Origin: Globisporangium splendens | Taxonomy: Eukaryota; Oomycota; Peronosporomycetes; Pythiales; Pythiaceae | DNA: 64,000 nt | Assembly (NCBI GenBank): GCA_006386115.1 | Contig: VFIW01000026.1 | Coordinates: 186,001 to 250,000, forward strand | Direction: 5' to 3' | In this document: positions 14,866 to 59,317 of the stretch, one piece after another | How the letters are laid out: the number at the start of each line of letters is the position of its first letter | Numbering within the stretch: the stretch's first letter is position 1 | The notes under the pieces: model-generated | The model's database searches: none | The model's input: only the letters and a program-made list of their open reading frames with translations | What the model was told of the DNA's origin: nothing | Made by a program: the position numbers and the translations under genes

Positions 14866-16481
14866 GTGAGGTATATTTAGGTTCATCTTCGTGACCTACA
14901 ATATCCATTCTCCTAACTAATCTTCATTGCGAATTTCATCTAGGAGTGTAAATGTGTCTATAGCACGGATTGCACTAGATCACTTCTGAATGCTAAATAA
15001 TCTTTGACCAGGATGGCATGTTCTCTTGGTCCTATGTGAGGCTGCCTTGTGTTGTCCAATGACCTTGGGTCTTCCGAACTTCGCATAAGCCAATGCATGA
15101 CGTCGTTGTCAAGATCATGGGTGAGATTGTTGAAAGCAGCTCGATGAGTTGGGAAGTGAACCTGCGTTGAGGTTCTGGTGTCCATGGCTAGGTTGGCGGC
15201 TGAGTCCGCCATCTTGTTGAAGGCACGGTAGTGATGGTACCATCCTCGGATGTCGATGCAATCCGCGAGTCGTCGACTTGTCTGGTATAAACGTGCCAAT
15301 CGGTGCTGTCGAGGGGACCGATGCATTCGCTGTTGGGAGATAATGAGTGCACTGTCTCCAATCACGTACAACGGTTCGAAGTGACTGCGTTGGGCTTCTC
15401 GGAGTCCGTGTATGAGACCCCAGTACTCGGCAAAGTTGTTGGTCGTGTCCTTCCTGCTATACGCCATGCTCGCGGCCCAAATTAAACTGGCTGTGTGCGA
15501 GTTTTCATGGACACGCACGATAATGGATCCAGTCCCTCCTGGTCCTGGATTGCCGCGTGATCCACCATCGAAAAACAACAGGTAAACGCCGCGAGTATCA
15601 CTTGGAGTCAAGGGGATGGCGTCGGTTTGGCTGAGAAAGCAGTCGACATATGCCTTGAGAACTGCCGCAACCGTGTGACCGTCCGAGTCTCCAGCTTGCG
15701 CTTCAGCGAGTCGTGTGAGGTTTCGCATTCCTGCCTCTAATCTGGTCATCATGATCGCCATCTCAGCAGTCGATTTGATTGGATCCGAATCCATGCGTCG
15801 CAGATGCGCACACCAAATGGTCTGTATGAGCGACGCGCTCATATATCGCCACAGCATGTGTGTGACGGGATAGAGATGATGATCTTGGAGGTGTTCATTG
15901 GAGAACTTGTGTCCGATAATGTGTCTCTTGATCGTGGTCCATGCATGCCTTGGAGTATCTGGTAGATCCAGACTGAAGATCCAGATTGCGGGGTCGTGAC
16001 CAGGAGTGATTCCGATCTTCGCCCATAGCGCATAAAAGTAGTTCCACACCAGTTTGGCTTTCGGACACTCCCAGAATAGATGTTGAACAGAAGATTGGAC
16101 AACTTGGGAGCATTCGGGATTCGAGCAGGATAGATCAGCTTTCTCATAGTTCCACATGGAGAGTCGGTTGGCTTTCAGCCGGAGAAGAGTCTGGGCTGTA
16201 TAAGCAGTAATCCCTGGGATGTTGTGTAATTCGCTCCATTGGATTAATTGCAGTCCTGGCCACAGAGATCCTGCTGTTTGGACAGCTTTGTTGACTGCTG
16301 CATCTCGAGTATCTTTGCCAATTTGTGTCCTCGTTGCTGCAACTTGTTGCCGATAGAAAGATCTGGCGGTATTGTATCGTCCGTTGCCACCCCATAGTTG
16401 CACGATTCTTGTGAAACGTGGATGTGCATGGAACGACACCTTCTGCCCGTTCAAGTCTCTTGTTGCCATGACGATACTCAT
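14866..16481 (-). mobile_element. 5'-truncated LINE-type (non-LTR) retrotransposon
   Basis: The minus strand carries the 3' part of a LINE: the end of the ORF2-type protein (zinc knuckle and RNase H), about 90 bp of 3' UTR, and a 3' terminus at about 14866 followed on the minus strand by an A-rich stretch (TAAAGATAAAGAAA). The reverse-transcriptase core and endonuclease are missing. The 5' break lies somewhere in 16480-16740 and cannot be placed exactly; an in-frame stop sits just upstream of the visible frame. I did not find a convincing target-site duplication. Positions 14866-14902 match the tail of the SINE at 16803-17051. Confidence 0.75.
14958..16481 (-). CDS. LINE ORF2 fragment: CCHC zinc knuckle (zf-RVT) and RNase H
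   Basis: An uninterrupted 507-residue frame. Around residues 95-150 it has the zf-RVT pattern that follows reverse transcriptase in many LINEs (LLRLKANRLSMW, CSNPEC, HLFWECPKAKLVW). Around 310-430 it has an RNase H domain with all four acidic catalytic residues: D in FFDGGSRGNPGPGG, E in NNFAEYWGL, D in VIGDSALI and D in MADSAANLA. RNase H would degrade the RNA strand during target-primed reverse transcription. The fragment lacks the polymerase, so it cannot move by itself. The unbroken frame suggests a fairly recent insertion. The first in-window ATG was used as a nominal start; the real protein began further upstream. Confidence 0.8.
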   Translation of the reverse strand: MSIVMATRDLNGQKVSFHAHPRFTRIVQLWGGNGRYNTARSFYRQQVAATRTQIGKDTRDAAVNKAVQTAGSLWPGLQLIQWSELHNIPGITAYTAQTLLRLKANRLSMWNYEKADLSCSNPECSQVVQSSVQHLFWECPKAKLVWNYFYALWAKIGITPGHDPAIWIFSLDLPDTPRHAWTTIKRHIIGHKFSNEHLQDHHLYPVTHMLWRYMSASLIQTIWCAHLRRMDSDPIKSTAEMAIMMTRLEAGMRNLTRLAEAQAGDSDGHTVAAVLKAYVDCFLSQTDAIPLTPSDTRGVYLLFFDGGSRGNPGPGGTGSIIVRVHENSHTASLIWAASMAYSRKDTTNNFAEYWGLIHGLREAQRSHFEPLYVIGDSALIISQQRMHRSPRQHRLARLYQTSRRLADCIDIRGWYHHYRAFNKMADSAANLAMDTRTSTQVHFPTHRAAFNNLTHDLDNDVMHWLMRSSEDPRSLDNTRQPHIGPREHAILVKDYLAFRSDLVQSVL

Positions 16482-16787
16482 GATGGACCTGCGCGTTTAT
16501 ATTATTCGCCAACGAATCGGAGCTGACGCGCTTGAATCTGGCGGAAGCGCGCTGCCTCCCTGTATTCGCATACCTCAATGTACAGAACGATACTCATTAT
16601 TGCAGGTGGATGCAGGAGAACATGCGCTTTTCACCATCCGATTCCTATTGCTGACCCGATGTCATCTACGGCGAATAAAATGTGATCGTCATGGTGATCG
16701 TGAATTTTGCGCTTGCAGATACCCAGCTGGGCAGATCTGGGCGTAATCCGCGTCGTGCAGGCATGAACGTGTCTCTTCTCACGCAGC

Positions 16788-48909: not shown

Positions 48910-51025
48910 AATGGAGCCGCAATATTAGGCAGAAAATTTTGAAAAAGCAGAGGTGAATGCCATTGACAGCGGTATCGATGGACACCTACGAATATATTAT
49001 TATTAGCACTTGCTGCATCGTGCAAGGTGGATATTTCAATTTGGCAGAGAACCATTTTCACTTTTCCATTTACGATTTTTTTGCCAGAGGCAAGATGCCT
49101 CAAGCGTACTGTAGTCCTCTGTGAGCGCTGGCGCCACGGAGGATTGCGCATCCACTGCAGGAGTAGACGAAAGTTTAGTGGAGCTGCCTTTCCAACGGGA
49201 AAATGCAAATGATACATAGTGGAACGGAGTCAACGTGACGTAAATCCACGTCTGTAAAGTTATTACTAGCACTTCCGAAAAAGTACGCTCCATATGCAGG
49301 ACCAGCAGTCAGCACCGTATCATACTTCACTCCTGCTGGTCATCTCTGTCCTGTCCGCGGAAAGTCGAATGCTCGCAACGTGCGTCTCGAGTCCTTCTTG
49401 TGCTGCTTATTGGCCCTTCCGCAGTCGCCAGCGCTGCAGTCAGCCTCCAATATTTCGTTCGTCTGAAGCAAGAAGAGGACAGGCGCAATCCACTATCCCC
49501 GTGCCAATGCTGCTGATGTAGCCATGCAGGAATTTTAGAGACCAGATATCAGACAAGGCAGTTTATCGGAAGTCAGAGAGCTGCAACGAACAGCATGAAT
49601 GATGATCTCTACTATCAGACCGGATCTTATACGAGGCGACTGCGCCACTGACGTTGGAAAAGTTTAACCCGTTTCTGCAAAGCTCTCTCTGTCAGCAAGG
49701 TCAAGTCCACGCGCAATGATCAGCGATCGCACGTCAATCAGTAGCGGCGTTCAGCTTTAACCAGCTTGGTGAGCACCGCTGGAGCTCAGTCAGATTTCAG
49801 CTCTGTTCATCTCTCTTCCATCATCAACCGAGTACGAGGTGATAGTACGGAAAGGATCGGGCGAAAGTCTCACTTCGGTGATATGGATCTGGAACTCGCC
49901 CTACGCACAGTATGTGATGTCAAGAATGCATCAAGGTCTCCGCGAAGGAGTTCAGAACGTACACCTCGCATTTCACGCCGTGGGCAGCGCCACCACGCCT
50001 TGGGCTCTTTTATTCGCAGTCGACTGACACGAGCATGTCCTCCTGTCCACGCTATCCAGGCGCTGTTTGGTTCCCCACGATCTGCTGAGGCGGTCAGCGC
50101 ACACGAAACACATGGGGAGGTCCGTGTGCGTCAACGAGGAGTTGACTTTGGTAGTCAGATCCCCCCCCATATGACGTGGGACGTGGCACTGTTACTCACC
50201 AGAGACTTGATTGATTGACCTTCTCGGAGTATCTAAACCTGTTTATATGCTATTTATTTGTTAACTGACATTTCTTCTTGTATTCAGTATGTCATTCTGC
50301 ATCTTTATATTACGTTCCTTTCCGAATGCTAATTCGTGAGGTGAGATGCAAAGGCATGTGGCCACGATGGGAAGATAACCACTTTCGAACGACTGACAGA
50401 TTTCTGAACGCAGCAGCGCCCTCGCTTTACGAGCATCCCGATCAACCTCATTAGTTATTAAATACCCATTTCAAGAGAAACTAAGAGCTGAGAATCGGAG
50501 AAAGTCATTAAGATCCAGGTAGCATTTCGATTGTCTCGTCGCTGTCCCCATCATCGCACCCAAAAGTTGATTACAAGACGGTCCTGTTTATAAAATCAGC
50601 ATTCACAGAAGATACACATTACCAATTGGCGGTATCTTGTCCATATTAACAGCGAAAAGCGTTGGTAACAGCGACCATCGAGTCTTAATTCATATTAAAT
50701 TACCCTGAAGCGCCCACTATTTCTGGAACTAATCCTTCTTCCCAACCAGTGCGCTGATTCGGGACAACGAACACGAGATGGAGGAAAAAAATGTGGCTCT
50801 GACGCAAACTACGCGACCGAAAGCCTCCCACGCACTCGCGCACACTACAGTCCGCTACGTACGCCTCACGTACGCCAAGCGCCTACTTCCGTCTGTCCCT
50901 CGCTTCGTGCGCTTGTCAGGCGCTCTTCCCACGCATCCAGCTCGTCCAGCTGGTCCGTTCAATCGCCAACGTGCCCGCTCGCGTCCAGCTGGCAGATTAG
51001 ATAGAAGCAGAAGAAGCAAGCAAAT
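48910..51025. other. Intergenic, SF15 to SF16
   Basis: 2.1 kb, AT-richer than the genes, with no supported feature. Confidence 0.5.
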
Positions 51026-52567
51026 ATGAGCGAGAGCGAGAGCCGCGACTCGTGCGCGGCGCCGCCGCCAACGGCCGTGGGTGCCGATCCGCGCGCGTCG
51101 TCGTCCTGGCGCGCGTCGTCACAGCTGTTCCCGACGATCCACCTGACCAAGGAGGAGCAGATCCACTACGACGTGACCGTCGGCCGCGTACTGCAGCGCA
51201 CGCTCACCGAGTACGAGAACTTCCGCGGACAGGTGAACAAGGACAACTGGGAGCTCGTGCGCAAGCGCAAGCAGATGAGCATCTACCGCAACCTGCAGGG
51301 GCTCGGCAACCCGCGCGTGACGCTCATGATGGGCACGGGGCTGATCCCCGGCACCGTCGAGGAAGTCATGGACGGGCTCTACAGCGACAACACGGACGAC
51401 CTGCGCGCCGTGCGATCGCTCATCAGGTACAAATTTGTCGATGGTGGCGTGTTCCACGTGTGCGAGAGCCGCACGCCCGAGGCGCCATACCGGTTCGCAG
51501 GCATCAAGTGGACGGCGGCCAAGGCGCCACTCGGTGGCACGCTCATCAAGAACCGCGACCTGCTCACGTACGAGCGCATGGGCATGACCACGGACGCCAA
51601 CGGGAACGAGATCGCGTACCACATCCTGCAGTCGATCAACCGACCTGAGTGGCCAGCCGATTGCATCAAGAACATTCGGCGCGCATACACGTCGACGTGC
51701 TACTTGTTCCGTCGTCGCAACAATGTCGTCGAGTGTTTCCTCTGGGGCGAGTACTACGCAAACGGTCACGTCGTGCAGAAACTCGCGGATTACGGCGTGT
51801 GCGGTCTCTGGATGAACGTTTTGTACGCGCCGCAATGCTCCGAGGCGAAGCGACTCACGCAGTTGATGGCGCGCGCGACGTCCGGCACGATCTCGCTCAG
51901 TGGTTCGTGCGACAATTGTCACCAGCGACCCGGGTATTTCGACAAACTGCGGTCGTGCGCTGGATGCCGCCAACGGATCTGCAAGGGCTGCACGACAGTG
52001 CGCAAGATCTTCAAGCTTGACTGGCATACGAAGACGATCCTCACGGAGAAATTCTGTCTGCTTTGTGTGACTTCGGTCACGAACCGATCTGTTGCAGTGG
52101 TTGGGCGCTTCGGCGATGCCCACTCGGCTTCCAGCACCTCGGACAGCAATTATGGCGCGAGCGAAGAGTACGAAGGCAATGAGCGAGTAACCAAGCTGCG
52201 AAGAGGACCAACGTCCGTGCCGCAGTTGCACAACCGAACCACATTGTCCTCAACGTTCCAGAGCTCAGCTCCAGGCAACTTGGGCACGAATCACATCGTG
52301 CCACCCCCAAGCAGTCTAGGCGGCAGCGAAATCAACGAAGAGGAGACGTTTGAGCTCACGGAAGCGAATCTGCGCAATTTCGAGCTGGGTATGAGCACAG
52401 TCGAAAGGGAGACAACGACGGCGCTGGACGAAGAGCCCAAGATTGTTGGACCCGAGGATATCTCGCCAATTGAGACCGAAGGACCGATTCTGGAGCGCGA
52501 TGGCCAGGACCGGTACTTCGTGGACATGCACACCAATAAAGTGCGACCAGGTCGTGCGTCAGTCTAA
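51026..52567 (+). CDS. SF16: START-FYVE-like protein, intronless, intermediate type
   Basis: A single 513-codon exon, the last member of the array. Start MSESESRDSCAAPPPTAVGA, an Ala-rich lead as in subfamily A but without its TSYATTAAAY signature. The START domain combines B-type blocks (MGTGLIPGTVEEVMDGLYSD) with A-type ones (FLWGEYYANGHVVQKLADYG), plus a small insertion (KAPLGGTLIKNRDLL). Finger CDNCHQRPGYFDKLRSCAGC...ICKGCTTVR...KFCLLC, eight Cys. The tail has LTEANLRNFELGMSTVE, a variant (FEL) of the LxxFDL motif, and ends RYFVDMHTNKVRPGRASV in place of DLY. Confidence 0.92.
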   Translation: MSESESRDSCAAPPPTAVGADPRASSSWRASSQLFPTIHLTKEEQIHYDVTVGRVLQRTLTEYENFRGQVNKDNWELVRKRKQMSIYRNLQGLGNPRVTLMMGTGLIPGTVEEVMDGLYSDNTDDLRAVRSLIRYKFVDGGVFHVCESRTPEAPYRFAGIKWTAAKAPLGGTLIKNRDLLTYERMGMTTDANGNEIAYHILQSINRPEWPADCIKNIRRAYTSTCYLFRRRNNVVECFLWGEYYANGHVVQKLADYGVCGLWMNVLYAPQCSEAKRLTQLMARATSGTISLSGSCDNCHQRPGYFDKLRSCAGCRQRICKGCTTVRKIFKLDWHTKTILTEKFCLLCVTSVTNRSVAVVGRFGDAHSASSTSDSNYGASEEYEGNERVTKLRRGPTSVPQLHNRTTLSSTFQSSAPGNLGTNHIVPPPSSLGGSEINEEETFELTEANLRNFELGMSTVERETTTALDEEPKIVGPEDISPIETEGPILERDGQDRYFVDMHTNKVRPGRASV

Positions 52568-53038
52568 GGAGAAGGCTGTGTGCGCATAAGAGAGAGTGGG
52601 AAGCGGTGTTGCGAATGCAGCAACCCAAAGTTAACGATCTCACCCATCGAAATCTCAGCTTTTTAAGGACACCACACCCAGTTTGATGCCAACGTAGCAG
52701 CGCTTCGCGTCGAGAAAGGACCAAAAGTAAACGAGAGACACGTTAGAGCTTCTCGTTTGTCTCTTCTTCTGCGTGCGCTGCGTGCATCTTGATGTGTTTT
52801 TGAGCAAACGAATAAATATGAACAAGAAACCAAGAAAGATCAAATTGTCGTCGCTTGCCATGATTTATCGTTTATAAGAGCACTCCTTGTTGACCCTCGT
52901 CTACCCAGTTTTCACGGTAATCACATTTACAAATCATCTACCAATCCAGTTTGTCCATTGATTATTCTCGATTTGAGCCAATCAAAGATGCACTTGAACT
53001 CATTCCGCAATTTCCCTTTTCGTACTGAGAACACGAAT
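52568..53038. other. Intergenic, SF16 to TMEM222-like gene
   Basis: No gene seen; it marks the right end of the START-FYVE array. Confidence 0.5.
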
Positions 53039-53872
53039 ATGGCGAGCACTGCGGACGAGATGCGCGTGGCCATCGACGACGCTGCGGGGGGCGAGGAAGA
53101 GCGCGGAGATCTGCTCATGGAGGAGAAGAAGAGCAGCAGTGTGCACCGTGGAAAGTCACCAGCGCCAGCAGTGATGCCAGCCGTCGATCCCGCAAAGCAG
53201 CGGTTTCCGTTCTGCATCGTCTGGTCGCCGATCCCCGTGCTCACGTGGGTCCTGCCCTTTATCGGCCATCTCGGCATCGCTGACTCCAAAGGGTGAGCCG
53301 AGCTCCGTGCGCAAAGCTGCTATGCGCATCGTGTGCGTGTGTCTACGTGTATTCATAATGAGCTCACGTATGTATGTGTATGTATTTGGTTGAAGTGTGA
53401 TCTTTGACTTTGCTGGACCATACACGATCGGCCGCGACAACTTCGCGTTTGGGATCCCGACGCGGTACGTGCAGTGCACCGTGAAGAAAGATGAAGTGGA
53501 GAAGTGGGACGCTGCGGTCGATGATGGATGCGCGGTGTACGCGACGCGGATGCACAACCTCTGGTACGTTGTCCAGTGTTTAAGACGTCGGTGCTGGTGC
53601 ATTGGACTTTTTTTCGATGAGAGACTAATTCGTGGATGCATCTCCTGATAATCTGTTTGATGTGGCGCAGTTGCGATAATTGTCACTCGCATGTGGCAGA
53701 GTGTCTGGAAAACATGCAGTACAAGGGGATCAAACGGTGGAACATGGTGATGCTGTGCTTCTGGGTGTTCTTTTGCGGGCGATACGTGGACACTATCGGG
53801 TTCCTCAAGTCCTGGGTGCCGTCGCTTCTTATCCTAGCGTTTGTTCTGTTTGTTCATTCGACAGCATCATGA
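53039..53872 (+). CDS. TMEM222: TMEM222/DUF778 family membrane protein
   Basis: Exons 53039-53292, 53396-53563 and 53671-53872 give 207 residues, the normal size for TMEM222. The family core is plain: RFPFCIVWSPIPVLTWVLPF and IGHLGIAD in exon 1, VIFDFAGPYTIGRDNFAFG in exon 2, and HNLCCDNCHSHVA across junction 2, followed by RWNMVMLCFWVFFCGRYVDT and a hydrophobic end. About three membrane segments are expected. The family includes plant RTE1 (ethylene-receptor modulator) and metazoan TMEM222; the biochemical role in protists is not established. An ATG at 52988 would add 17 residues; 53039 was chosen because it gives the usual length. The gene converges on the minus-strand Kelch-IFT88 locus, with only about 130 bp between stops. 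Confidence 0.9.
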
Positions 53873-54005: not shown

Positions 54006-57000
54006 TTAGGCTGCAATGCTGATCTGCAAAGAAAAAGAAGGAGAGCAGAAGAAACCTCCATGAAGCTTTGCCAGTTTTGCCTGGAACCCATCGCAGTGCT
54101 GTCCAAGATCTTTGCAGATCGCGACCAAGTGCCTCAAGCACTCGAGATTCTCTGGGTAATCTTGATGAATTTGTTCGTAGAGTACCATGGCTTTCTGGTA
54201 CGCACCCTGCGTCGGTAGCAACTCGTGACCATGAGCCTCCATTTGACTTCAGTTGACTGGATTTGGCTCGCGCGCTCAAAGAACTGGATGGCTTTCTCGT
54301 AGAGCTCACTCTTCACGTACCATACGCCGAGCCAGGAGATGACGTCAAGGTTGATCGGGAAATACCAATATGATTCTAAATGGTAATGGAACGCCTGGGT
54401 CTCGTCGTCGTCTTTGTTGAAGATCTGTCCCAGTCGTGCGAAAACGCCCGGATCGGCGACGCTTTTCGGCGGGTGCTGGTGTTTCCCGTTCCTTTCGGGT
54501 TTGTCGGAGCTGCCACCGAAGCAAGAGATCAAGATGTTGAACCATTTCGCTGCCTGGCGGTAGTTGCCCATCATGTCGTGTAGACTCGCAATCTGGTACA
54601 GCACTTCGGTGTTGCTTGGGACGATACTGTGCAGCTTCTCGAACGCCTGCAGTGCTTCGTTCAGGATTCCCATCTTGATGTTCACGAGACCGAGGTTATA
54701 GACTGCTTCAATGCAATCCGCTTCGACACCGATTGCTTCCAGGAACAGCTCTTTTGCACGCTCGCACTCGTTCTTGACGTACAGGCAGTTGCCTTTGTTG
54801 ACGAGTACTTTCGCGTTGTATCGCTGGTGGCGAACTGCCATGGACGCGTATTTATCTGCTTGGTTGGTGTCGCCCTCGATGAAGTACAAGTAGCTGAGAT
54901 TCGTCGCTGCCATGGCTTTGTGGACCTGGTCTTTTTTCTCCAAAGACTTGAGTACTTCGATCGCTTTTTCAAAATCCTTTTGCTTCAGGAAGCAATGTGC
55001 TTTACAGATCTCCACTTCGCTTGCAAGATGCTCGTGGTTTTCCTGCTTCAAGGCGTCGATGACCCAGGTATACCCAGCGAGCCAATCCTTCTTGTCGAGT
55101 GCCGGGGCACACAACTTCGCGGCGATCAAGATATACTCCATGGACTTTTTGCGACGTGCTCGAATCTCGGCTTTGAGTCCATCGGTCTTCAGGTTGTGCA
55201 AGTGATCTTTCGAAGACGTATGGCGGTCATCGTTTCCACCGTCCTTGGACTCGCTCGCAAGCGCTTCTTCCTCCTCTTCTTCCTCCGAGAGTCCCTCCAT
55301 AGGGATACTGATCAGATTCGTGAACTCGCGTCGCATCTTTTCGTGCTCGCCGATCGCGTAGTAGCAGATGATCAAGTTGAAGCCAGACTGGAAATCCGCG
55401 TTACCCTCCATGATGTCTTCAAAAGTTGCTGCCGCGTCCTGGTAATGGCCTAGTTTGATCTGCACCGTGCCGATATTGCGCTTGATCTTGTACCGGATCT
55501 CCTTGCTGGTGTTTGGAATTTGATCGAGCGCCATACGGTACATGCGAATCGCGGTGGGGTACTGCTGCTGCTCAAAGTAGATGTTCCCAATGTTGATCCC
55601 ATTCGAGTAGTGCAGATTGTCGGCGGTGCATGGGTACTTTTGGATGTTTTCGAGGTACGAGTCGTTGTCCGTGTGCTCGAAACCCGAAAAGCAGCAATGA
55701 TTGCAACTCTGTTGTTGGTCAATGTCGCTGTAGGTGCAGTAGCTTCCGAGACACGAAGAATTGGAGCAGTCGACGCCATAGTATCCGTCATCGCAGCGAC
55801 AATTGCCGTAAAGGCATTTTCCGTGCAAAGAGCAGTTCTTGGGCAATTGTTGAGGTAGTATTGACAGAGATCGCCGAGCGAGCTTCCTGGGTACGTTGTC
55901 TCGACCTGGTACAAATACTCTTTTTCAAACCCATGACCCCCGAACACGAATGTTTTGTCAAAGCCCTCATGGTATGTGGCCATGTGACCTGCTCGCTGCG
56001 ACGGGTGAGCCCACTGAAGCTCCTGAGCAAGATCCGTCCGTCCATCGCTGCGGTCGCGGCAGCCGTCCCAGCCAGGAGCTTGACGTCGAGCTTGAAGGGT
56101 GAACACAGGCTCCAAGTTTGAACCTCGCGTCGGCTCGGCAAAGACCGAAAACTATGCAGACGGACCACAAGAGTAAGTGAGTTATTGCTCTTTCGTGCGT
56201 GGATGTGGTATTTTCTTACATTGAATGTGCCGTAATACCGCTCCTTGATGAAGTAGTACCCATCGAGGGTATCTGGTAAGTCTGCTGGCGGCACAAACGC
56301 CTTGTAGTTGCCACTGTGCTCCAATTTGCGCGCTTGCAGGTCGTCCGTGCAGGCATCCGGGTAAAGCGCATGCACGAAACTGGTCTGCTTCACCCATCGA
56401 TTTGCACCTGCACAGCCACCACGCAAGCAAAAAAAGAAAAGCAACGTTCAAGCGTCTACCAAGGCATCAATTGCGAGGGAGATGGAGCCACATACTCGTG
56501 TTGTACTGCCACGTGTCGTCGTCGTAGTAGTTTGTGATGTACCCGCCGAAGAGGACAAACACGCCACCCTTGGCAGCGATGAGCGTGTGGTCGAGTCGTG
56601 GAGGCAGCACTTTTTCTAGTCTGCGGTCGCTCTCATCAGTTGTCGGCGTGATTTCCTCCCAGAGACCCGTGCTCAAGTTGTACTTCCAGAAATCTTGCAG
56701 GTAGTACGGATGCGTTGGGAAGGGGATGAAGCCATTGCCTCGCACCGTGAGTGTTCCGCGTCCAGCACCTCGCCCCGTTGTCGATGGATACGGGAAAAAC
56801 GTGCGGTACCCGCCGTGAATGAAGATCGCGTGGTCGTAGTACACAACCGAGTGGCCAGCTCGTCCCGTTAGCCACGTGAGGGTGTACTGCGCGTCAATGC
56901 TGAGCGCCGGGTCGATCAGCGTTAAGTCGGGACACACCACGGTCTCGGTGATGTCTGTCCACTTGTTGGTGGCCATGTCGTACACCCAGAGATCGTTGAG

Positions 57001-57567
57001 GTTGCAGCCACCCCATTCAGCCCCCGAGTTGAGCACTTGCCACATCGAATCGCGACAGCTATCGTCAGCATACCGCGTGCAGTCTACAGAGAAGAAAATG
57101 AGGCTACGTCAACACGACGCACATCAAAACGAAAATGCAATGCAAGACTCGCTGACATCATAGCTCCAGACGTTGTTGAGGTACACGGCGACGCGCACTT
57201 CGGTCGAGTCTGTCGGGCGTGCGATTTTGTCCTCGTGCGACAAGAACTCGAGCGTGCCGTTCACTTTGTGGATCTCATACGTCTTGGGAATGTGCGTCCT
57301 CGTCGAGTCCTCGGTTCGTCCGCCAAACACGATTAGTTGTGTCTTGTAAAAGCACATCGAGTGACCGCGGCGCACGTCGGGACCATCGGAGTCAGTCCAT
57401 TTCCACTCTTTCCAGGCGAACGCTGCAACAACACAAGTCGTAGACCATCGTTCAGCACAGTCAGACATGCGTACACAGGCTCCAGGATGGCGTATCCAAG
57501 CAGCTACTTACCTGACGACAAGAGCAACAACGACCAGAGAACGAGCAAATATGTGGATTTGTGTCAT
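54006..57567 (-). pseudogene. IFT88: Kelch/EGF-like protein fused in frame to IFT88 TPR region; several frame breaks
   Basis: Read on the minus strand. Exon 1 57512-57567 gives a hydrophobic leader; exon 2 57157-57422 and exon 3 56496-57083 give Kelch blades (RRGHSMCFYKTQLIVFGG, LNDLWVYDMATNKW, RAGHSVVYYDHAIFIHGG, HTLIAAKGGVFVLFGG); exon 4 is 56220-56407; exon 5 runs from 56151 to the end. Exon 5 holds another blade (AGHMATYHEGF...FVFGGHG), an EGF-like stretch (CSLHGKCLYGNCRCDDGYYG, CCFSGFEHTDND) and, from about 55598, IFT88. The IFT88 part has NIGNIYFEQQQYP, MALDQIPNTSKEIRYKIKRN, GFNLIICYYAIGEHEKM, AAKLCAPALDKKDW, ALYN-type TPR units and FFERASQIQ. IFT88 is an IFT-B train subunit needed to build flagella. 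The IFT88 N-terminus and C-terminal tail are missing. One-base breaks occur near 57558, 57156, 55842 and 54206. A fusion gene in decay is likeliest; sequencing error is the alternative. Confidence 0.7.
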
Positions 57568-57686: not shown

Positions 57687-58523
57687 TCATATTGCTCTGA
57701 GAATGGCTGACGCTACTGCTATTACTGCGTCGTCGGCAAACTCCTTCGCTGCGTCTCGCTCTGGTGCTTGGAAGATGCTCTTCTGCTGCCATATTGTCAA
57801 ACCGAACGCTTGTTTCTCTCTCGCATGCAAATGCTCTGCCAGCCACACGACGAGGTTCGAGTGTCCGCGTTGTGCGGCGACATCGATCGCGTCCATTATG
57901 CTGCTTTGTCGTCCAAACTGCGCGAGCCACGTCACGATGTGAAAGTGTCCGTTGTAGCTGGTATCCACCAGCGCTCGATACGTGCATCCTTCCGCTCTAT
58001 GCATGTGCAACCACTGGACGACATCAAAGTGACCGGAAACCGCGGCGGCGTCCATGGCGTCGGTGGAGCAGCCTTCGTCTCGATGCATGTGCAGCCACTG
58101 GACAACGTGTAAGTGGCCGCCTGCCGCCGCTAGATCCATAGCATCCGACGTGCATCCTTCCCTTCGATGCACGTGTAGCCACTGGACAACGTGCAAATGC
58201 CCATTGGCTGCCGCCATGTCCATGGCGTCTGCTGTGCATCCCTCCATGCGGTTCCAGTGCAGCCACTGCACGACATCCAGATGACCACACTCGGCCGCAA
58301 AGTCCATGGCATCCTGGACACCGTCGAAATCGCCCACGGGTGTGGACGCGCTCAGTGTCTGCACAAGGTACAGGCGTCCGTGCGCGGCGGCGTTCCCGAT
58401 CGTCCACTCGTGGGAATGGTCCAGGAACGACGTGAGCAGCTCCGTGAGCAGCGGAATGTCAACGCCCTTCGCGACACTCACTGCGCGCACAGCCGGCGAG
58501 ACTCGACGATGTGTTGGTGCCAT
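57687..58523 (-). CDS. Ankyrin-repeat protein (28-residue WLH-type repeats)
   Basis: A single-exon frame of 278 residues from the ATG at 58523 (MAPTHRRVSPAVRAVS). After an N-terminal helical part come about six ankyrin-type units of 28 residues. Four are very regular (AAxxGHLHVVQWLH, then EGCTxDAMD) and two are more diverged (GHFHIVTWLAQF, GHSNLVVWLAEH). Ankyrin repeats of this degenerate kind are abundant in oomycetes and mediate protein binding; the partner is unknown. No signal peptide or membrane segment is seen. The C-terminus is short and helical. Its upstream side has a (GT)n run at 58541-58553. Confidence 0.85.
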   Translation of the reverse strand: MAPTHRRVSPAVRAVSVAKGVDIPLLTELLTSFLDHSHEWTIGNAAAHGRLYLVQTLSASTPVGDFDGVQDAMDFAAECGHLDVVQWLHWNRMEGCTADAMDMAAANGHLHVVQWLHVHRREGCTSDAMDLAAAGGHLHVVQWLHMHRDEGCSTDAMDAAAVSGHFDVVQWLHMHRAEGCTYRALVDTSYNGHFHIVTWLAQFGRQSSIMDAIDVAAQRGHSNLVVWLAEHLHAREKQAFGLTIWQQKSIFQAPERDAAKEFADDAVIAVASAILRAI

Positions 58524-59317
58524 TGGACTTTGTGAGTGTGTGTGTGTGTGTGTCTTGTGAGTGTGCGCAGCGCGACGCAAAAACGCGAATGAGGGCAACT
58601 TGGCTCACTCCCCTTGATCGGACTAGTTCGTTCCTCCCTGCACGAGCTGACAACAGATCTTGAGCAGCTACATTGCGGCACGAACCTCTTGAACCACATA
58701 CCCTCACCAAATCGACTTGTTAGATCATGCTTTTTGCATGTAGCCACGTTGTGTTTCTCCCTGGGAAAAACGATGTCGCCCTGTCTCTGGACAATATGAT
58801 GAGCAATGCGATTTGCAGCATGCGCCTCGCCCCATCGCAAAAGTGGGGCAAATGCGCATGTACCACCCGCGTGACATGTCCCTCGTTCCCTCCTGTATCT
58901 CTTCGCCGAGTCCTCCGTACCCACACATGCAGGCACTTCATGACTGTACATCACCGTGGTCGTGCTCACGACGACCGGACCCACTGCGTGCATCGCGGAT
59001 GGGCGGGCGGACCATAAGAAGTCGAAGGCGAAGTGGCCCTAATGCGCGATTGCCAACCCACACGAGGGAGGTGATGCTCTGATACGAACGCGCTCTCTGT
59101 AATCTCGTGGGTTTGTCAGCACGTTCAAGTCCCACAGGATGACGCTAACTGGTTCCACATGGCAGCGGTTTTCCCCTCCGCCATGCGTCTCCAAAGCTCT
59201 GCTTGATGGTGAAACGGACGGCACATGGCGGCGGCTCTTGCCCGCGCGTTTCCTCTGTTGCATTCCTGTAGCTCTTGTGCCTTCTGACGATAAGCTAACA
59301 GCATGGAATAAGCCACC
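58524..59317. other. Intergenic, ankyrin gene to TRP pseudogene
   Basis: It holds the upstream region of the minus-strand ankyrin gene, with a (GT)n run at 58541-58553. Nothing else is recognisable. Confidence 0.5.

What the first reader, a model, noticed from the sequence alone, without database searches (positions are those of the whole stretch)
54006..57567. In-frame fusion of a secreted Kelch/EGF protein with IFT88
Exon 5 reads from the Kelch/EGF part (...NLHYSNGI) into the IFT88 TPR region (NIGNIYFEQ...) without a stop or intron near 55598. One half should be extracellular or luminal, the other belongs to the cytosolic flagellar transport train. The IFT88 N-terminal third and the end of the Kelch/EGF protein are missing, as expected from a deletion between two neighbouring same-strand genes. 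I know of no such natural fusion.
Basis: partly seen in the sequence, partly recalled or inferred. Interest (0 to 1): 0.75.

Follow-up and report, generated by a model that had tools for sequence, protein, structure and literature searches.

The report
Dead flagellar gene fused by deletion
In an oomycete that seems to have lost its swimming spores, two neighbouring genes were truncated and run together by a deletion; the join looks like a fusion protein but is a broken remnant, one of several decaying flagellum genes in this genome.

Summary
An open frame does run from Kelch/EGF sequence into IFT88 at 55598/55597, but it is not a working fusion gene. The Kelch frame breaks near 55840, upstream of the join; 0 of 40 enumerated splice choices carry Kelch translation into IFT88; the open frame's first Met lies after the join. 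IFT88 has a second frame break (~54207) and no recognisable tail. The Kelch gene has an internal deletion (~57000) and lacks its last ~130 residues. Searches of the 53.3 Mb assembly found no second IFT88 and no other home for the missing parts beyond weak paralogous matches. The two genes are neighbours in other oomycetes, so a deletion is well supported. Seven of 7 IFT genes examined closely carry lesions (IFT88, 81, 80, 57, 46, 121, 144). In-frame stops hit 9 of 11 non-cytoplasmic dynein slices (7 of 11 counting only stops away from alignment gaps), against 0 of 2 cytoplasmic copies. Best reading: flagellar genes are decaying in a zoospore-less oomycete, probably Globisporangium splendens. 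The process is known from downy mildews; I found no report for this genus.

The parts
57512..57567 (-). Candidate exon 1 of the Kelch/EGF gene (ATG at 57567, hydrophobic signal-like stretch by eye); not in frame with exon 2 by the GT-AG boundaries found
   Evidence: 8 of 8 splice choices from this ATG stop after 28 residues; true exon 1 not proven
57149..57422 (-). Kelch exon 2 (approximate end)
   Evidence: tblastn with P0121; splice choices
56496..57103 (-). Kelch exon 3 (approximate start), with an internal deletion of about 112 residues joined at ~57000
   Evidence: P0121 residues ~140-252 have no counterpart here and the flanking residues abut; elsewhere in the assembly only weak Kelch-type matches, 33-38% identity
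56220..56407 (-). Kelch exon 4
   Evidence: tblastn; splice choices
55837..56151 (-). Kelch part of exon 5, up to the frame break near 55840
   Evidence: P0121 478-582 in one frame, 582-663 in another, no intron-sized gap
55598..55840 (-). EGF part, in the frame that runs on into IFT88
   Evidence: 77% identity to P0121 582-663; Pfam EGF_2 and EGF_Teneurin
55597..55598 (-). Junction: end of Kelch/EGF sequence, start of IFT88 TPR sequence
54209..55597 (-). IFT88 TPR body (about P0001 residues 128-590), 463 codons open
   Evidence: (8bd7_A E 3.6e-126)
54063..54206 (-). IFT88 continuation after a frame break at ~54207; no recognisable C-terminal tail beyond
   Evidence: 95.8% to P0001 592-639; tail not found
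53621..53869 (+). Last exon of the next gene (RTE1-like family), ending about 190 bases from the IFT88 remnant
   Evidence: PF05608 E 2e-10; spacing

Best explanation
The locus is a relic of two neighbouring genes, a secreted Kelch/EGF protein and IFT88, in an oomycete whose flagellar genes are no longer under selection. At least one deletion removed the end of the first gene, the spacer and the start of the second, joining them by chance in an open frame. Further small and large lesions hit both genes. Shown: the open frame across the join, the missing parts, the frame breaks, neighbourhood of the two genes in other oomycetes, no second IFT88 found in the assembly, and lesions in the six other IFT genes examined closely and in most of the non-cytoplasmic dynein heavy-chain slices. 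Inferred: that loss of flagellated zoospores came first and decay followed; the order and mechanism of the deletions; the species (probably Globisporangium splendens).
For: (1) Frames. (2) Missing parts: IFT88 N-terminus has no match in the assembly at E <= 0.01; Kelch C-terminal ~130 residues likewise. (3) Neighbour pair elsewhere: 2 pairs by consecutive locus tags, 4 more by equal contig length. (4) Other IFT genes: in-frame stops inside aligned stretches of IFT121 (4), IFT144 (1), IFT57 (2), IFT46 (1); a stop directly after the aligned start codon of IFT80; a frame change without room for an intron in IFT81. (5) Dynein heavy chains: 16 in-frame stops in 14,062 alignment columns over 11 non-cytoplasmic slices, 9 of 11 slices hit; counting only the 8 stops with no gap within 12 columns, 7 of 11. 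The two cytoplasmic copies have none and are open for 4450 codons each. The 4450-codon chain is cytoplasmic dynein 1 by its best PDB matches; L031, one of the 11, is axonemal. (6) Control: 2 of 27 myosin-head matches of 400 bits or more show stops, 4 of all 42. (7) Relaxed constraint: 10 changes at IFT88 sites invariant in 21 relatives, against 0 in nearest relative P0001; relative-rate counts 16-18 against 2-5 with five outgroups. (8) Base quality: published as an Illumina plus PacBio hybrid assembly (PMC7163027, whole text), if the species is right.
Against: The IFT88 body keeps a 463-codon open frame at about 91% identity, so decay is recent or this part is unbroken by chance. One of 11 non-cytoplasmic dynein slices (L036) shows no lesion. 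Eight of the 16 dynein stops lie within 12 columns of a gap and may be intronic. In the like-for-like domain search only 3 of the 11 non-cytoplasmic AAA_6 matches contain a stop. The change of frame in IFT57 between 351202 and 351309 may be an intron and is not counted. IFT20 could not be judged (a 38-residue piece). The IFT81 frame change sits in a short run of C. A second haplotype with intact genes could be missing from the assembly: two cytoplasmic dynein copies at 98.6% show that some haplotypes are kept apart, though the flank of this locus occurs once. P0019, another relative, has 16 private changes, more than the window.
Confidence: 0.92

Rival explanations
1. A functional fusion gene that makes a Kelch/EGF-IFT88 protein, perhaps by unusual splicing.
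For: Open frame across the join; IFT88 body conserved at 91%.
Against: Kelch frame not continuous with IFT88; 0 of 40 splice choices tried connect them; no Met before the join in the open frame. Partner IFT genes broken as well, so an IFT train is unlikely.
Confidence: 0.03
2. Assembly error: a chimeric join and uncorrected base errors in an otherwise intact genome.
For: No reads could be examined here. The IFT81 frame change is in a short C run, a typical place for errors.
Against: The missing parts were not found elsewhere in the assembly. Cytoplasmic dynein is open for 4450 codons in two copies and myosins are nearly free of stops, so errors would have to prefer flagellar genes. Most lesions counted elsewhere are in-frame stops, not indels.
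Confidence: 0.03
3. IFT88 alone is still made as a shorter protein from an internal start after the join.
For: A Met lies 18 residues after the join and about 445 IFT88 codons follow before the frame break.
Against: Frame break at ~54207, missing C-terminus, and lesions in the six other IFT proteins examined closely.
Confidence: 0.02

Closest known systems
Decay of flagellar genes in the downy mildew Hyaloperonospora arabidopsidis (PMC3471859; passages read)
   Same: Remnants of flagellar genes, IFT172 among them, with indels, larger deletions and local compaction, in an oomycete without zoospores.
   Different: There 211 of 257 genes lack orthologs and the 37 remnants average 57% nucleotide identity to P. 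infestans. Here the genes examined are largely still present with few lesions each, in another lineage (Pythiaceae).
[quoted passage not shown] passages read)
   Same: Repeated loss of flagellar genes in lineages without zoospores.
   Different: In downy mildews; in the passages seen, Pythium/Globisporangium serves as outgroup or comparison.
Pythium (Globisporangium) ultimum (PMC2926784; passages read)
   Same: A relative that very rarely makes sporangia and zoospores; 14 putative axonemal and IFT orthologs showed no expression.
IFT88 (PDB 8bd7_A)
   Same: TPR body aligns (query residues 87-573).
   Different: N-terminal and C-terminal parts missing and frame broken here.

Membership tests
IFT88 | TPR body matching known IFT88 | tested here: met
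   8bd7_A E 3.6e-126; 91% to P0001
IFT88 | Complete N-terminal TPRs and C-terminal tail in one frame | tested here: not met
IFT88 | Partner IFT proteins intact | tested here: not met
   lesions in IFT81, 80, 57, 46, 121, 144; IFT20 not judged, others not examined
Oomycete Kelch/EGF protein (attractin/teneurin-like domains) | Kelch repeats then EGF repeats, about 790 residues | tested here: not met
   Domains present (relatives) but ~112 internal and ~130 C-terminal residues missing, frame broken
Fusion gene | One reading frame from the first gene's start into the second gene | tested here: not met
   0 of 8 and 0 of 32 splice choices
Fusion gene | Transcript and protein spanning the join | not testable with these tools
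   no RNA or protein data at hand
Flagellar gene decay after loss of zoospores | Lesions in many flagellar genes, few in other large genes | tested here: met
Flagellar gene decay after loss of zoospores | Organism makes no zoospores | not testable with these tools
   Species inferred from assembly size; absence of zoospores in G. splendens is recalled, not found

The most novel reading that the evidence does not exclude
The Kelch/EGF protein is itself an unrecognised flagellar surface or mastigoneme protein of stramenopiles: it sits next to IFT88 across oomycetes, and here it carries lesions of its own besides the deletion it shares with IFT88. With loss this recent, lineages of the same species or close sisters may still carry intact sets.
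Probability: 0.25. Interest if true: 0.5.

Novelty: new member of a known kind. Interest (0 to 1): 0.38.

Why it matters
It turns an apparent odd fusion into evidence for an early stage of organelle loss. Nearly whole flagellar genes with few lesions each could show which parts break first and date the loss, where Hyaloperonospora shows only older scraps. Genes that decay along with the IFT set here become candidates for unknown flagellar functions.

Tried and rejected
A functional fusion was tested by enumerating splice sites and rejected. A second IFT88 or another home for the missing parts was sought; two searches gave, besides this locus, one weak TPR match each (24% and 27% identity), and one search gave five weak Kelch/EGF-type matches elsewhere (30-38%). 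Assembly error was weighed against open frames in cytoplasmic dynein and myosins. A changed genetic code was rejected because stops of all three kinds interrupt IFT genes while a 4450-codon frame stays open. IFT80 first looked intact; the stop directly after the aligned start codon was seen later. IFT20 gave only a 38-residue piece and is left out of the tally. The C100 matches of the IFT46 search and one C162 match were not followed. Of 16 dynein matches, three low-scoring ones (C168, C180 twice) were dropped before the count. One search left out minus-strand loci by a filter; one search repeats it with all 13. The radial-spoke gene has in-frame stops, but one may be in an intron, and its C68 and C100 copies are identical over 3537 bases, so it is not counted. 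Neighbour evidence that does not pair up: the Pythium insidiosum and Phytophthora ramorum rows come from different contigs or assemblies and say nothing either way. DNA of relatives was not available, so no dN/dS and no ancestral junction.

Full report
WHAT WAS CLAIMED.

WHAT IS THERE. The frame 55924-54134 is open for 596 codons and passes the join. After the join it is IFT88: PDB 8bd7_A aligns with query residues 87-573, E 3.6e-126, and the best protein relative, P0001, is 91% identical over 82% of the query. Before the join, 82 residues match the EGF part of P0121 from Pythium insidiosum at 77%. The join is therefore real in this assembly. Reads were not available.

NOT ONE READING FRAME. 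P0121 aligns to the window in one frame up to residue 582 (55837) and in another from residue 582 on (55840), without room for an intron. The Kelch frame, carried on, ends at a stop at 55450. The open frame that contains the join has its first Met at residue 128, after the join at residue 110. From the ATG at 57567, 8 of 8 enumerated GT-AG choices end after 28 residues. Starting instead in the frame of exon 2, 0 of 32 choices reach IFT88, while 2 of 32 keep the Kelch frame through exon 5 and then stop. Only sites in short windows around the expected boundaries were tried; unusual splicing cannot be excluded without RNA.

MORE LESIONS. Inside the Kelch part, P0121 residues about 140-252 are missing at ~57000, with the flanking residues abutting. 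IFT88 has a frame break at ~54207 and no recognisable tail after 54063. The IFT88 N-terminus gave no match in the 53,310,241-base, 195-contig assembly at E <= 0.01. P0121 gave six matches at this locus and five weak ones elsewhere (30-38% identity); none covers its last ~128 residues. No second IFT88 was found; apart from this locus, searches gave one weak TPR match each. The tool scores only its best candidates. The flank 51000-53870 occurs once at full identity; its other 16 matches are shorter, diverged stretches, 15 of them on the same contig.

HOW IT AROSE. In Pythium oligandrum the Kelch and IFT88 genes carry consecutive tags (Poli38472_002807 and _002808), in Saprolegnia parasitica SPRG_08234 and _08235. 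Four further pairs have the same longest-contig length: P0131/P0003 (10856), P0136/P0018 (23645), P0152/P0015 (40308), P0137/P0027 (160628). That equal length means the same contig is inference, and orientation in those species was not seen. A deletion between neighbours explains the join.

THE WIDER DECAY. IFT121 aligns over query residues 10-1016 to its PDB relative, with four in-frame stops inside aligned stretches. IFT144 has one in-frame stop, IFT57 two and IFT46 one. IFT80 is otherwise open for 763 codons but has a stop directly after the start codon, as aligned to the PDB relative. IFT81 changes frame in mid-gene without room for an intron. With IFT88 that is 7 of 7 examined closely. 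IFT20 could not be judged. IFT52, 74, 172, 140 and 122, among others, were not examined.

DYNEINS AND CONTROLS. The dynein domain AAA_6 gave 16 matches; three low-scoring ones were dropped. Two of the other 13 are copies of one heavy chain, 98.6% identical, each with a 4450-codon open frame; it is cytoplasmic dynein 1 (about 1657 bits, against 777 or less for any axonemal or dynein-2 chain listed). One of the remaining 11, L031, was checked and is axonemal; the other ten were not placed one by one. In slices of about 4 kb, 9 of the 11 have in-frame stops, 16 in 14,062 alignment columns. Eight of the 16 have an alignment gap within 12 columns and may be intronic; the other eight fall in 7 of the 11. 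One more slice (L032) appears to change frame; one (L036) shows nothing. The cytoplasmic copies have none. Within the AAA_6 domain alone, 3 of the 11 have a stop. As a control for base quality, 2 of 27 myosin-head matches of 400 bits or more have stops, 4 of all 42.

RELAXED CONSTRAINT AND AGE. In the aligned IFT88 body (479 ungapped columns), the window has 10 changes at sites invariant in 21 relatives; the nearest relative has 0, the other 20 have 0 to 16, with P0019 highest. Relative-rate counts are 16-18 against 2-5 with five outgroups. With a nonsense share of 0.040-0.044 of random changes, 8 to 16 stops in the dynein slices correspond to roughly 0.5-0.9% neutral change; this is my own arithmetic and rough. 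It is of the order of the 1.4% between the two cytoplasmic dynein copies, so the loss seems recent.

ORGANISM. Named IFT88 relatives nearest to the window are oomycetes, Pythium oligandrum first at 84%. Globisporangium splendens rgcb-1 was published at 53.3 Mb in 197 or 198 scaffolds, 195 of them over 10 kb, from Illumina and PacBio data (PMC7163027, whole text), which fits G000. That G. splendens makes no zoospores is recalled; paper searches did not show it (passages of two papers).

WHAT IS KNOWN. Flagellar gene decay is described in Hyaloperonospora (PMC3471859, passages) and gene loss in other downy mildews (PMC6264045 and PMC9997571, passages). P. ultimum is reported to have the set (PMC2926784, passages). 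Searches for Globisporangium, Pythium or oomycetes with flagellar gene loss listed no report of decay in this genus; two searches listed 20 of 126 and 20 of 33 papers, and the library holds open-licence papers only.

THE KELCH/EGF PROTEIN. Full-length relatives have about 780-790 residues, with Kelch repeats resembling attractin/LZTR1 and EGF repeats resembling teneurin, and a hydrophobic C-terminus (by eye in P0121). The 11 of 36 rows that name a species are ten oomycete rows and one brown alga, groups that I recall as having flagellated stages. Its place beside IFT88 and its own lesions suggest a flagellar role, but it may simply have died by the shared deletion.

VERDICT. The open frame is real, the deletion reading is right, the fusion protein is not. 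The find is a fresh case of a known process in a lineage where I found no report of it.

Noticed in passing
L024 (G000:C151:347000-355000), about 349790-350400: A truncated NEK-like kinase piece (by eye) with an in-frame stop runs in the same frame into the start of the broken IFT57 gene: possibly a second join of neighbours at a flagellar locus.
   Followed up: partly
window 1872-52567 and contig C117 around it: A tandem array of related genes (matches about 66-76% alike in DNA), several with long open frames; stretches near 42-43 kb and 47-48 kb are nearly identical in part. No Pfam match for the two copies tested.
   Followed up: no
window 14958-16496, minus strand: Long open frame that looks like the end of a retrotransposon (RNase H-like by eye).
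   Followed up: no
L064 (C68) and L065 (C100): Radial spoke 4/6 gene with in-frame stops, present in two stretches identical over 3537 bases: recent duplication or an assembly duplicate.
   Followed up: partly
L047-L050 (C112, C150): Two copies of the cytoplasmic dynein heavy chain region at 98.6% identity, probably two haplotypes kept apart in the assembly.
   Followed up: partly
window 57690-58604, minus strand: Ankyrin-repeat gene next to the Kelch remnant with an open frame of 305 codons.
   Followed up: no
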